Source: an uncultured Phocaeicola sp. (GTDB lineage: Bacteria; Bacteroidota; Bacteroidia; Bacteroidales; Bacteroidaceae). Taken from it: DNA of 64,000 nt. The position numbers and the translations under genes were made by a program. Shown piece after piece: positions 5,192 through 63,942 of the stretch (positions within the stretch are counted from its first letter, which is position 1; the number at the start of each line of letters is the position of its first letter). The notes below the pieces were generated by a model. The model was not told the origin of the DNA and made no database searches. It was given only the letters and a program-made list of their open reading frames with translations. The stretch spans positions 1-64,000 of the forward strand of contig CALUJF010000004.1 of the NCBI GenBank assembly GCA_944320855.1, written 5' to 3'.

Positions 5192-5279
5192 CACGTTCGT
5201 GTTCCGCCCGCGTCACGTTCGTGTTCCGCGCGTTACACGTTCGTGTTCCACCCGTTACACGTACGTGTTCCGCTTTCTA
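5192..5279. repeat. Four-copy 22-bp tandem array in the 3' flank of HTCS 1
   Basis: Four units start at 5192, 5214, 5236 and 5258, exactly 22 bp apart, each beginning CACGTTCGTGTTCC (CACGTACGTGTTCC in the last). The core ACACGTTCGTGT is a near-palindrome, and in copy four ACACGTACGTGT is a perfect one. There is no spacer diversity as in CRISPR, and no coding potential. Confidence 0.9.
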
Positions 5280-5325
5280 CGTCGAAGAATTTTTCTATAA
5301 ACGTACGGAAACATAACAAAAGATT

Positions 5326-5360
5326 AAGAGCCATATCCCAATTGTCGGAATATGGCTCTT
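5326..5360. terminator. Bidirectional hairpin terminator between converging genes
   Basis: AAGAGCCATAT (5326-5336) pairs perfectly with ATATGGCTCTT (5350-5360) across a 13-nt loop. It lies between the converging HTCS 1 and GH51 genes. T-rich stretches are weak, so termination efficiency is uncertain. Confidence 0.6.
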
Positions 5361-5394
5361 TGCAATTTATCTGTTTACCTTACTATACTTCGCT

Positions 5395-6930
5395 TTATTT
5401 AAGCTCCAGCGTTACTATTGATTTTGCAGGAAGTTTCACCTTAAGTGTGTTCTTGCTGATTTTTGCACCTTTGAATTCTTTAGGGCAAACTACGTCCGGA
5501 TTCTCGAAAGAGTTGTAATCGTCAATCTTGTCTGAAGTAAGGATTCTTCCCGAAACACTCTTGATGTTCATGCCGTCAAGCTTGATTGTGATTTCCTGTT
5601 CTTCGTTCAAATCTACATTTGACAGCGAGATGTGTGTCAGTCCGTCCTTGCGTGATGCTGTGGCACTCACCATCGGCACTTCTCTGTTGTCCCTTACCAC
5701 CTTGTAGTTACATTCGAGGTTCAATGGCAGGTATGTAGCATCCTGATGTACGTTGTACATTTCGAACACGTGGTATGTAGGAGTCAGTACCATTTTGTCG
5801 TCTTTTGTCAGAATCATTGACTGAAGAACGTTTGCTATCTGTGCGATGTTTGTCATCTTTACGCGGTCAGTATATTTGTGGAACACATCGAGAGTGAGTG
5901 AAGCTACGAAAGCATCGCGAAGTGTGTTCTGCTGGTAAAGATGTCCTGGGATGGTTCCCGGTTCTTCGTCCCACCATGTACCCCATTCGTCCACCATCAG
6001 GGCAATTTGTTTCTTAGGGTCATACTTGTCCATGATGGCGATGTGGCGTTTCAGTACATCTTCTATTTCAAGACACTTGCCCATTGTCCAGTAATAATCC
6101 TCGTTTGTGAACTTGGTAGCCGAGCCTTTGCTGCCGCTCCATCCTGTCACTGTATAATAGTGGAGTGACACTCCGTCCATTCTGTGGCCTACGTTCTGCA
6201 TAAGCACCTCAGTCCAGTTGTAATCATAGTCGCTCGCACCGCTTGCAATCTTGAACAGTCTGTTTCCGTTATAGTTTCTGCAGTAAGTGGAATAACGACG
6301 ATACAGGTCGGCATAATATTCCGGACGCATGTTTCCACCGCATCCCCAACTTTCGTTACCTACTCCGAAGTATTTCACTTTCCAAGGTTTTTCACGTCCG
6401 TTTTCCTTACGGAGCTTTGCCATAGGGCTTCCCTGTTCGGATGTCATGTATTCCACCCATTTTGCCATTTCCTCTACCGAACCGCTACCTACGTTTCCGC
6501 TGATATAAGGCTCGCATCCGAGCATTTCGCAGAGGTTGAGGAACTCATGAGTACCGAAGCTGTTGTCTTCTACCGTACCACCCCAGTTGTTGTTCACCAT
6601 GCGAGGGCGGTTTTCCTTAGGACCGATACCGTCCATCCAGTGATATTCATCGGCAAAACATCCGCCCGGCCATCTCAGTACAGGCACTTTCAGTTTCTTC
6701 AGTGCCTCGAAAACGTCTGTTCTATAACCTTTTATGTTAGGAATCTTCGAGTCTTCGCCTACCCAAAGTCCGCCGTATATACATGTACCAAGATGTTCGG
6801 CAAACTGTCCGTATATTTCTTTCGGTATAATCTGGTTCCCTTTTTCAGGGTATATTTCTATCGTAGCCTTCTGCTGTGCAAAAGCCGATACGCTTGCCAT
6901 CATGGCAATAGATAAAACGATGTTCTTCAT
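5395..6930 (-). CDS. Alpha-L-arabinofuranosidase, GH51 (compact form)
   Basis: Retaining exo-enzyme that removes terminal alpha-L-arabinofuranosyl units from arabinan or arabino-oligosaccharides, probably in the periplasm. It has 511 residues. A signal peptide (MKNIVLSIAMMASVSAFA, then QQ) is followed by the GH51 signature EIYGQFAEHLG. The (beta/alpha)8 barrel has the acid/base Glu193 in GVGNESWG and the nucleophile Glu315 in MVDEWGTWW, and the C-terminal beta domain follows. The length suits the short bacterial GH51 type without an extra binding module. It starts only 3 bp after the stop of the other GH51, so the two are translationally close and in one operon. It is the last gene of the leftward arabinan-degradation operon. 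Confidence 0.95.
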   Translation of the reverse strand: MKNIVLSIAMMASVSAFAQQKATIEIYPEKGNQIIPKEIYGQFAEHLGTCIYGGLWVGEDSKIPNIKGYRTDVFEALKKLKVPVLRWPGGCFADEYHWMDGIGPKENRPRMVNNNWGGTVEDNSFGTHEFLNLCEMLGCEPYISGNVGSGSVEEMAKWVEYMTSEQGSPMAKLRKENGREKPWKVKYFGVGNESWGCGGNMRPEYYADLYRRYSTYCRNYNGNRLFKIASGASDYDYNWTEVLMQNVGHRMDGVSLHYYTVTGWSGSKGSATKFTNEDYYWTMGKCLEIEDVLKRHIAIMDKYDPKKQIALMVDEWGTWWDEEPGTIPGHLYQQNTLRDAFVASLTLDVFHKYTDRVKMTNIAQIANVLQSMILTKDDKMVLTPTYHVFEMYNVHQDATYLPLNLECNYKVVRDNREVPMVSATASRKDGLTHISLSNVDLNEEQEITIKLDGMNIKSVSGRILTSDKIDDYNSFENPDVVCPKEFKGAKISKNTLKVKLPAKSIVTLELK

Positions 6931-6933
6931 AAG

Positions 6934-62361: not shown

Positions 62362-62455
62362 AATAATGATATTTTTTTACACAGAATTATCGCTTGTAAA
62401 TGCTTTGGCGACAGCATAATACACAATATTGCAATAATATCTTGTGTGTAAACAA

Positions 62456-62463
62456 TACCTTTG
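62456..62463 (+). promoter_or_regulatory. Promoter -7 box for the GH88 gene
   Basis: TACCTTTG matches TAnnTTTG, 63 bp before the preferred ATG at 62527. It gives the lyase-product hydrolase its own transcript. Confidence 0.55.
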
Positions 62464-62526
62464 TAATGCTTCGAAAATTATAAGTGATAATTCTTTTTTT
62501 ATAATATGATAAACCCAATTTTACCT

Positions 62527-63807
62527 ATGAAGAGAAATTACTTTATTGCTGCTATCGCTGCATTGGTTATGGCATCGTGTGGCAATACACAACAAAAAGA
62601 AGATTATAGTTGGATTAAAACATCGTTGGACAGGTCGGCTTCACAGCTTCTGCTGACTGCACATGAAATAGACGGTACAGGCAAGTTGCCTCGTTCAATC
62701 CATGTTGGTTATGATATGGATTTTCTGGTAAGACAGTTGGAAAGAGATACTGCTACTTTTGTAGATTCATTGCGTAAGAAGCCTACTCCGGAGATGGAGG
62801 GCAAACGCAGATTGTGTAGCGTTTATGATTGGACAAGTGGTTTCTATCCAGGCTCATTATGGTATGCTTACGAACTTACCGGCAATAAAGAGTTGGAAAC
62901 TGAGGCTGCAAAATACACCAATCTGTTAAATCCGGTACGTTATTATAAAGGTACACACGACTTGGGATTTATGGTTAATTGCAGTTACGGCAATGCACGC
63001 CGTCTGGCATATGCTGATACTATCGATGCTGTAATGGTTGAGACTGCAGATAATCTTATAGGACGTTTCGACGAAGGTACTTCATGTATCCGCTCATGGG
63101 ATTTCGGTACTTGGAATTTCCCTGTTATCATAGATAATATGATGAATCTTGACTTGCTGTTCACTGTAAGCAAAATGACTGGTGATGCCAAGTATAAGGA
63201 AATAGCATTGAAGCATGCCGACAAGACTATGGCTAATCATTTCCGTCCGGACTATACTTGCTGGCACGTGGTAAGCTATAATAATGATGGCTCAGTGGAA
63301 CGTAAGCAGACTCATCAGGGAAAGAATGATGATTCATCATGGGCCCGCGGTCAGGCTTGGGCAGTTTACGGATATACATCATGCTATCGCGAAACAGGTG
63401 ACAAGAAGTATTTGGACTTTGCTGTTAATGTGGCAGATATGATAATGGACAGAGTGAAAACAGATGATGCTATTCCTTATTGGGATTACGATGCTCCTGT
63501 TGCTGAAGAAACTCCTCGCGATGCTTCGGCTGCTGCTGTTACAGCTTCTGCGCTGATTGAGATGAGTACTATGGTGGAAGACGGACAGAAATATTTCGAT
63601 TATGCGGAGAAAATACTAAAGAGTTTGTCGTCTGATGCATATCTTGCAAAGGAAGGAGATAATCAGGGATTTATATTGATGCATTCTACAGGTTCTCTTC
63701 CTAACGGTTCGGAAATAGATGTTCCTCTTAACTATGCGGACTATTATTATCTTGAGGCTTTGCAGAGATATATGAAACTGAAAGGTATTGAATATAAGAA
63801 ATTATAA
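62527..63807 (+). CDS. GH88 unsaturated glucuronyl/uronyl hydrolase, lipoprotein
   Basis: Removes the 4,5-unsaturated uronic acid left by the lyases from the non-reducing end of imported oligosaccharides. It has 426 residues from the ATG at 62527, which directly starts a lipoprotein signal (FIAAIAALVMASCGNT, Cys18); the in-frame ATG at 62506 adds seven residues. The (alpha/alpha)6 barrel shows the two catalytic aspartates of the family: Asp145 in THDLGFM and Asp203 in VIIDNMMNLDLL. Further hallmarks: VYDWTSGFYPGSLWYAYEL, SWARGQAWAVYGY and YADYYYLEAL at the end. Corresponds to BT4658 in the heparin PUL. Confidence 0.94.
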   Translation: MKRNYFIAAIAALVMASCGNTQQKEDYSWIKTSLDRSASQLLLTAHEIDGTGKLPRSIHVGYDMDFLVRQLERDTATFVDSLRKKPTPEMEGKRRLCSVYDWTSGFYPGSLWYAYELTGNKELETEAAKYTNLLNPVRYYKGTHDLGFMVNCSYGNARRLAYADTIDAVMVETADNLIGRFDEGTSCIRSWDFGTWNFPVIIDNMMNLDLLFTVSKMTGDAKYKEIALKHADKTMANHFRPDYTCWHVVSYNNDGSVERKQTHQGKNDDSSWARGQAWAVYGYTSCYRETGDKKYLDFAVNVADMIMDRVKTDDAIPYWDYDAPVAEETPRDASAAAVTASALIEMSTMVEDGQKYFDYAEKILKSLSSDAYLAKEGDNQGFILMHSTGSLPNGSEIDVPLNYADYYYLEALQRYMKLKGIEYKKL

Positions 63808-63810
63808 ATA

Positions 63811-63942
63811 GTTGACAAGACTGCTTTTCAGGCGACAAGTTGACGAGTTGACAAGGCTCTCCATCCGGATGGGAACCTTGTTCACTTGTAACTGAAGCCT
63901 TGTTACCTGAAAGAAAACCTTGTCAACTTGTTAACTCGTTAA
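63811..63942. repeat. Inverted GTTGACAAG / CTTGTCAAC repeat region after GH88
   Basis: GTTGACAAG at 63811-63819, with relatives at 63839 and 63848, faces CTTGTCAAC at 63919-63927 and GTTAAC-type copies up to 63942. Two internal units beginning CTTGTT (63877, 63899) are 22 bp apart. A long imperfect hairpin can form between GH88 and the next gene. Phasing is less regular than in the other arrays. Confidence 0.65.

What the first reader, a model, noticed from the sequence alone, without database searches (positions are those of the whole stretch)
5192..63942. Several local intergenic repeat arrays with mostly different sequences but a common 11-bp or 22-bp period
Seen directly: arrays at 5192-5279 (22 bp), 9004-9102 (11), 30861-30948 (22), 35880-36000 (11), 44802-44900 (11), 47039-47082 (11) and 47286-47343 (22), plus a looser one at 63811-63942. 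The unit sequence generally changes from site to site, though TGAAC/GTTCA recurs in four of them. The period does not change, and 22 is exactly two 11s. Ordinary replication slippage would give varied periods. A constant period near one helical turn suggests a common generating or selecting mechanism, such as a protein binding one DNA face, a helix-tracking enzyme, or templated copying. Nearly all lie in 3' flanks, and several fold into hairpins. I know of no established name for this class.
Basis: seen in the sequence. Interest (0 to 1): 0.85.

Follow-up and report, generated by a model that had tools for sequence, protein, structure and literature searches.

The report
Eleven-base palindrome lattices at gene ends
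In one small group of Phocaeicola gut bacteria, the DNA behind many genes carries short self-complementary words whose centres sit exactly 11 or 22 bases apart, in several differently spelled repeat families; they likely act as hairpins, lengthened or shortened one 11-base word at a time, that would end or protect messenger RNAs.

Summary
Intergenic DNA of this genome has an excess at lags 11, 22, 33 and 44 that shuffles and sampled congeners lack. The '22-bp' arrays are 11-bp lattices as well: two palindromic words alternate, 11 bp apart. A word-blind test agrees: perfect 8-bp palindromes lie 11, 22 or 44 bp apart more often than at other distances. Unit sequences fall into a few dispersed families: TGAAC/GTTCA, RTTTAAAYRSY, and a superfamily with SACNNNNGTS four times at 22 bp. 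They are concentrated in a clade of Phocaeicola and lie mainly in 3' flanks. At cysS the array is the stem of the gene's terminator-like hairpin; orthologous stems differ by one 11-nt word yet stay paired, and two other ortholog sets differ by one 11-bp unit. Best reading: modular 3'-end hairpins of self-complementary words, partly terminators, partly REP-like elements. Not everything fits: over all tandem arrays there is no strand bias, and in the ACANNTGT family each word, not the pair across the hairpin, is kept self-complementary, which speaks for a DNA-level dyad such as one protein dimer per helical turn. Why 11 is not proven. One listed array (63811-63942) has period 8.

The parts
5186..5285 (.). 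4 x 22-bp element: CACGTTCGTG/CACGTACGTG words at 5192, 5214, 5236, 5258, between convergent genes (HTCS-like 1119-5159 + and arabinofuranosidase 5395-6930 -)
   Evidence: TRF; words; nine copies compared; gene families by Pfam
9015..9098 (.). 11-bp lattice: TGAAC x4 then GTTCA x3, in the 3' flank of a GH43 gene (9093-10133 -)
30859..30948 (.). 4 x 22-bp element with GACTATAGTC-type words, long stem (dG -68.4, z about -11.7 against mononucleotide shuffles for the stretch folded), 3' flank of a GH43 gene (29786-30844 +)
35884..35954 (+). 71-nt lattice stem behind cysS (TGAAC words outside, TTTAAA words inside); stem of a terminator-like hairpin
35955..35961 (+). Run of seven T directly after the cysS stem
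44870..44900 (.). Partial 11-bp lattice (TTTAA words), 3' flank of a sulfatase gene (44925-46886 -)
47038..47077 (.). 11-bp array of GGTTCA words; TGAACC words in the other orientation lie at 47216-47235
47285..47347 (.). 22-bp array AAACGCTTCGTCGTTT, 2.7 copies, ending in a T run; weak fold here (dG -20.5), related arrays elsewhere fold better

Best explanation
These arrays are lattices of self-complementary words, spaced 11 or 22 bp, that likely serve as modular hairpins at the 3' ends of genes, partly as stems of intrinsic terminators and partly as REP-like dispersed elements. Shown: dyads at exact 11- or 22-bp steps, 3'-flank enrichment, orthologous inheritance, single-unit gain or loss, and at cysS a lattice stem where most other species have a conventional predicted hairpin. 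Predicted: the folds. Inferred: because each word can pair with copies of itself, a stem can take up or drop one word and still pair, so steps of one word are tolerated and others are not, which would lock the period in descent; and the SACNNNNGTS families would have drifted apart from one 4 x 22 ancestor. Not shown: that transcription ends there, and why the first lattice had 11 (one helical turn) rather than another period.
For: 3' position: TGAAC arrays 18 convergent and 4 divergent of 47, baseline 77 and 126 of 513 (p = 0.0001 and 0.016); TTTAAA arrays in tandem settings lie at a median of 20 nt behind the stop. cysS: 30 flanks read; lattice stem in 6 genomes, a predicted hairpin of other sequence in 22. 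The six stems are 71, 71, 60, 60, 60 and 58 nt, all followed by a T-rich stretch, more stable in sense in 5 of 6 (equal in G078), with outer stem letters that differ while pairing is kept. One-unit differences also at a second locus (4 units in G028, 3 in G015 and G060) and between this genome and P. faecipullorum. Where the next gene starts 45 nt or more away, G-U exceeds A-C on the sense strand at 7 loci, the reverse at 1, 4 ties (p = 0.07). Separate terminators upstream of the array in 9 of 81 flanks, against a terminator in 49 of 164 array-free flanks (p = 0.001, but the stretch before an array is shorter).
Against: Over all 71 tandem arrays G-U 165 and A-C 151: no strand bias. Loci with the next start under 45 nt away: 4 against 5. 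TGAAC arms pair with foreign arms nearly as well as with their own (22 pairs, mean fraction of foreign arms as good 0.40), and their folds show no sense preference (12 against 11). ACANNTGT family: within-word symmetry 104 of 120, partner pairing 44 of 120. Any separate terminator: 16 of 81 against 49 of 164, p = 0.12. A conventional terminator-like hairpin stands directly before one TGAAC array. GACTATAGT elements have A-rich, not T-rich, DNA after the stem.
Confidence: 0.5

Rival explanations
1. The arrays are DNA binding sites: a small symmetric dimer, about one per helical turn, would bind along one face of the DNA (as some ribbon-helix-helix proteins do, recalled), for example as a roadblock or nucleoid mark at gene ends; hairpins would be a by-product of tandem palindromes.
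For: In the ACANNTGT family the two centre bases of each word are complementary in 104 of 120 words (shuffled mean 49%, maximum 64%), while the words that face each other in the hairpin match in 44 of 120; with the rows left out added it is 120 of 153 against 51 of 148. Spacing is exact: 86 TGAAC pairs at 11 against 2 and 3 at 10 and 12. Arrays inside operons persist without a good sense-strand fold.
Against: Different words coexist in one genome and would need several proteins; no candidate protein was sought or found; the CACGNNCGTG centre shows no within-word symmetry (32 of 104, shuffled 35%); five G025 arrays of a deviating spelling have self-complementary centres in only 1 of 18 words; cysS stems behave as RNA stems.
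Confidence: 0.27
2. They are selfish or neutral dispersed repeats: 4 x 22 elements copied as wholes by a transposase acting in trans, with 3' flanks as the place where insertions do least harm.
For: Nine CACGNNCGTG elements share the order of their words and, in most, flanking letters outside the array; all 20 chains in array-bearing genomes have exactly four words; copy numbers differ between species; an extra palindromic stretch of about 75 bp of the 8-bp type stands in the cysS flank of G065 but not of G000 (by eye).
Against: Y1 transposase (RAYT type) is absent from all 8 TTTAAA-positive genomes, though present in one of 14 CACGNNCGTG-positive ones (G062); other transposases were not tested; the one empty-site attempt was uninformative; TTTAAA arrays are vertically inherited with locus-specific arms.
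Confidence: 0.3
3. Ordinary slippage: short arrays arise by replication slippage and 11/22 is a coincidence of a few families.
For: Unit gain and loss does occur, and arrays with periods 8 and 21/42 exist too.
Against: The same 11-bp dyad step in words of different sequence; no arrays in shuffles; best lags at 11/22 dominate in this genome but not in G011, G001 or G030.
Confidence: 0.04

Closest known systems
REP / BIME elements (repetitive extragenic palindromes; PMC3733652, abstract and passages seen)
   Same: Palindromic, dispersed, intergenic, mostly downstream of genes and between tandem or convergent genes, able to fold as RNA, several families in one genome
   Different: REP units are 20-40 bp with a GTAG or CGTC tag at one end and often a RAYT transposase; here a lattice of dyads every 11 bp, fixed four words at 22 bp in one superfamily, and no Y1 transposase in the 8 TTTAAA-positive genomes
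Intrinsic (Rho-independent) terminators
   Same: At cysS and similar loci: stem behind the stop codon followed by a T-rich stretch
   Different: Stem built of tandem self-complementary 11-nt words and variable by whole words; some families lack a T run after the stem
BrickBuilt MITE of Porphyromonas gingivalis (PMC4596501; abstract and two sections seen)
   Same: Bacteroidales, intergenic, tandem units of about two helical turns, predicted long stem-loops, unit number varies between strains
   Different: 23-nt unit, 1 to about 23 copies, leader and tail with terminal inverted repeats; no 11-bp dyad lattice described in what I read
Tandem operators of ribbon-helix-helix proteins (for example plasmid R1 parC with 11-bp repeats, MetJ boxes; recalled, not looked up)
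   Same: Short words repeated at a fixed step, about one dimer per word
   Different: Few loci with a known protein; here many loci, several words, no protein known
10-11 bp A/T periodicity of bacterial genomes (recalled)
   Same: Period near one helical turn
   Different: That is a weak genome-wide composition signal; this is a set of discrete intergenic arrays

Membership tests
REP / REPIN-RAYT system | Dispersed palindromic repeats, mainly downstream of genes | tested here: met
REP / REPIN-RAYT system | Associated Y1 (RAYT) transposase | tested here: not met
   PF01797: 6 of 61 genus genomes have it, none of the 8 TTTAAA-positive ones
REP / REPIN-RAYT system | GTAG or CGTC tag at one end of the palindrome | tested here: inconclusive
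   No systematic test; by eye in nine CACGNNCGTG elements no GTAG, but GTCGAAG or CGTCGAAG stands behind several
Intrinsic terminator | GC-containing stem followed by a U tract, behind the stop codon | tested here: met
   For the cysS lattice stems; overlapping terminator call in only 17 of 81 array flanks by a strict short-loop rule
Intrinsic terminator | Transcription ends there | not testable with these tools
   No RNA data
BrickBuilt MITE | 23-nt unit with leader, tail and terminal inverted repeats | tested here: not met
   Units of 11 or 22 bp; leader and tail were not searched for
Cooperative DNA-binding site array (ribbon-helix-helix type) | Dyad-symmetric words at a fixed helical step | tested here: met
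   not met for the CACGNNCGTG centre and for G025
Cooperative DNA-binding site array (ribbon-helix-helix type) | A cognate protein | not tested
   No gene-content comparison was made
Rfam RNA family | Match at gathering score | tested here: not met
   0 matches in the window

The most novel reading that the evidence does not exclude
A clade-specific system reads or writes gene ends through the DNA dyad itself: a family of symmetric proteins, or a copying enzyme, works in steps of one helical turn, so that any self-complementary word is accepted as long as its centre falls on an 11-bp lattice, and new words arise while the lattice is kept.
Probability: 0.2. Interest if true: 0.85.

Novelty: new variant of a known kind. 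Interest (0 to 1): 0.6.

Why it matters
It would show how 3'-end hairpins can evolve by whole modules: self-complementary words let a stem gain or lose one turn without losing its pairing. It also offers a natural test bed, with many orthologous loci and close relatives with and without arrays, for asking whether RNA stems or a DNA-phased protein keep an 11-bp period in bacterial intergenic DNA.

Tried and rejected
A single RNA reading for all arrays: the strand test over all tandem arrays is flat, so I keep it for terminator-like loci only. Paired evolution of TGAAC arms: not supported (22 pairs; three of the five best are overlapping perfect palindromes). RAYT membership: not met. Empty-site test at the window's 5186-5285 element: uninformative, because the G065 flank diverges there and the other flanks read have other sequence (20 loci). 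Families first taken as unrelated were partly merged after the SACNNNNGTS test. Within/partner symmetry for TTTAAA words: no clear difference (51 and 43% within, 43 and 48% partner, 43 and 50% foreign at the two variable offsets). Paper searches for the phenomenon: 0 papers; 89 papers, 15 listed, titles and abstract starts seen; 0; 1; 2; none looked like a description of it. That is all that I claim about print.
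Full report
OBSERVATION. The window is contig C4 of a 3,325,955-base draft genome. A record titled Candidatus Phocaeicola faecipullorum aligns to it over 6431 bases at 91.9% and 823 at 89.2% (lineage), so the genome is a near relative of that species; the genus name of the other genomes rests on the tool's 'same genus'. In 284 kb taken without regard to arrays, lags 22 and 11 lead all lags from 4 to 60 in intergenic DNA; local arrays: 8 at lag 22, 5 at 44, 2 at 11, one each at 15, 21, 42 and 51; shuffles none. 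Genes in all my counts are simple ORF calls, not curated annotation.

ARCHITECTURE. In 849 kb, much of it chosen because it holds TGAAC arrays, same-strand TGAAC words are spaced 11 (86 pairs), 22 (59) and 33 (25), against 2 and 3 at 10 and 12; GTTCA-to-TGAAC distances peak at 17, 28, 39 and 50 (23, 24, 20, 14). A second word, RTTTAAAYRSY, is symmetric at the purine/pyrimidine level: in 78 units R is kept in 71, S in 70 and Y in 72 at positions 9-11. The 22-bp families are lattices in which two palindromic words alternate, 11 bp apart, for example CACGNNCGTG with SRAGNNCTYS or with AACGNNCGTT (listing). Words SACNNNNGTS, which take in the CACGTACGTG, GACTATAGTC and GACAGCTGTC families, are spaced 22 bp 66 times and 44 bp 43 times, against a mean of 0.38 at other distances; of 21 chains of three or more, all 20 in array-bearing genomes have exactly four words, and G011 has one of three. 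A test that ignores the words counts perfect 8-bp palindromes: pairs at 11, 22, 33 and 44 bp are 4, 10, 4 and 8 against a mean of 1.40 at other distances in the unbiased part (single other distances reach 5), 22, 32, 11 and 19 against 2.51 in the chosen part, and 1, 0, 1 and 1 against 1.28 in G011, G001, G030 and G035.

DISTRIBUTION. RTTTAAAYRSY triples: 8 of 61 genus genomes; 6 of 399 sampled family genomes, all in this genus, 1 of 30 genera. ACANNTGT triples: 8 of 61. CACGNNCGTG triples: 14 of 61. TGAAC triples: 131 in this genome, 1 to 7 in four of 35 genus mates, and 6 in one genome of another family of the order; the reversed control is 0 in this genome and at most 2 in any of the 60. So the words are not all confined to the same species, and single families reach beyond the core clade.

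POSITION. TGAAC arrays: 23 tandem, 18 convergent, 4 divergent, 2 at edges; TTTAAA arrays: 32, 11, 4 and 1; baseline intergenic regions of 100 bp or more: 310, 77 and 126. Fisher: TGAAC convergent p = 0.0001, divergent 0.016; TTTAAA divergent 0.011, convergent 0.14. Orthologues are counted more than once among the TTTAAA arrays. With all arrays of lag 11/22 the counts are 71 tandem, 35 convergent, 17 divergent and 4 at edges of 127.

ORTHOLOGUES. 48 TTTAAA arrays fall into 13 ortholog groups of two to four and 15 single ones by flank similarity. Changes lie at the purine/pyrimidine positions and in the arms; but these arrays were found with an exact pattern, so conservation of the core is built into the choice. 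cysS is free of that bias, because it was found by protein: 59 of 61 genomes have it, 30 flanks were read. Six have a lattice stem (G000, G065, G078, G028, G018, G060); G022 ends too early; G001 shows no clear hairpin; the other 22, judged by eye from the fold, have a predicted hairpin of other sequence. The lattice stems are 71, 71, 60, 60, 60 and 58 nt. One-unit differences were also seen at the L201/L210/L200 locus (4 units in G028, 3 in G015 and G060) and between this genome and P. faecipullorum. I made no count of all indels, so I cannot say what share of indels is a multiple of 11.

RNA OR DNA. For RNA: pairing kept at cysS while outer stem letters differ; sense-strand G-U excess at 7 loci against 1 with 4 ties where the next gene starts 45 nt or more away, p = 0.07; fewer separate terminators before arrays. 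Against: no bias over all 71 tandem arrays; 4 against 5 loci where the next start is close; no own-arm advantage for TGAAC; within-word but not partner symmetry in the ACANNTGT family. In that test the kept arrays include orthologues and 13 of 30 come from one genome (G078); five G025 arrays go the other way (1 of 18). The CACGNNCGTG family shows no symmetry at its centre. Two things may share one lattice: terminator stems of 11-nt words, and 4 x 22 dispersed elements. Nine of the latter share their word order; most also share flanks, but the tail is missing in L154 and L156 and altered in L142.

WHY ELEVEN. 11 bp is one turn of A-form RNA and close to one turn of negatively supercoiled DNA (recalled). 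Inference: once a stem consists of self-complementary words, only steps of one word keep the pairing, so the period is locked in descent. This does not explain the first choice of 11, and arrays of period 8 and 21/42 in the same genome show that 11 is not compulsory.

LITERATURE. REP elements share position and palindromy (PMC3733652, abstract and passages). BrickBuilt has a 23-nt unit (PMC4596501, abstract and two sections). A survey of structured RNAs in human microbiomes reports 250 palindromic candidates, 230 of them predicted to contain terminators, some mainly in Bacteroidetes (PMC8040213, passages); whether any is one of these families was not checked. The library lacks most subscription papers.

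Noticed in passing
window 63811-63955; L138 5165-5205; G000 C1 88204-88260 and 21844-21905: A separate set of 8-bp arrays (CAACTTGT, AAGTTTAT types), also at gene ends.
   Followed up: partly
G000 C1 19304-19403; L137 10806-10901; L144 355-409: A/T-rich arrays of period 21/42 (TATAAATATAAGC.. type) in intergenic DNA.
   Followed up: no
L246 (G065) behind cysS, compared with L245 (G000): About 75 bp of palindromic 8-bp-type sequence stand between the cysS stop and the lattice in G065 but not in G000: a presence/absence difference of a small element.
   Followed up: no
L036 2968-3045 (Bacteroides caecigallinarum): A TGAAC array of the same unit style in another genus; shared ancestry, transfer or contamination was not tested.
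   Followed up: no
L138 15921-15985; L156 1004-1062; L189 10754-10822; L195 5140-5212; L193 932-1006: In the AAACG..CGTTT and ACGTGGGCAAATTT arrays single 22-bp units seem to be flipped in place: the orientation of units varies while the spacing is kept.
   Followed up: no
L237 17188-17245 (G001): GCAGATT arrays of period 10/20 in a congener without the 11-bp lattice.
   Followed up: no
L141, just before 12505 (and L019): A conventional terminator-like hairpin directly before a TGAAC array, so that array is not needed as that gene's terminator.
   Followed up: partly
G025 C3, C5, C33, C48 (listing): A distant genus mate has its own 22-bp arrays (ACAGATGTGATTCACTTGTTTC) whose word centres are not self-complementary.
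   Followed up: partly
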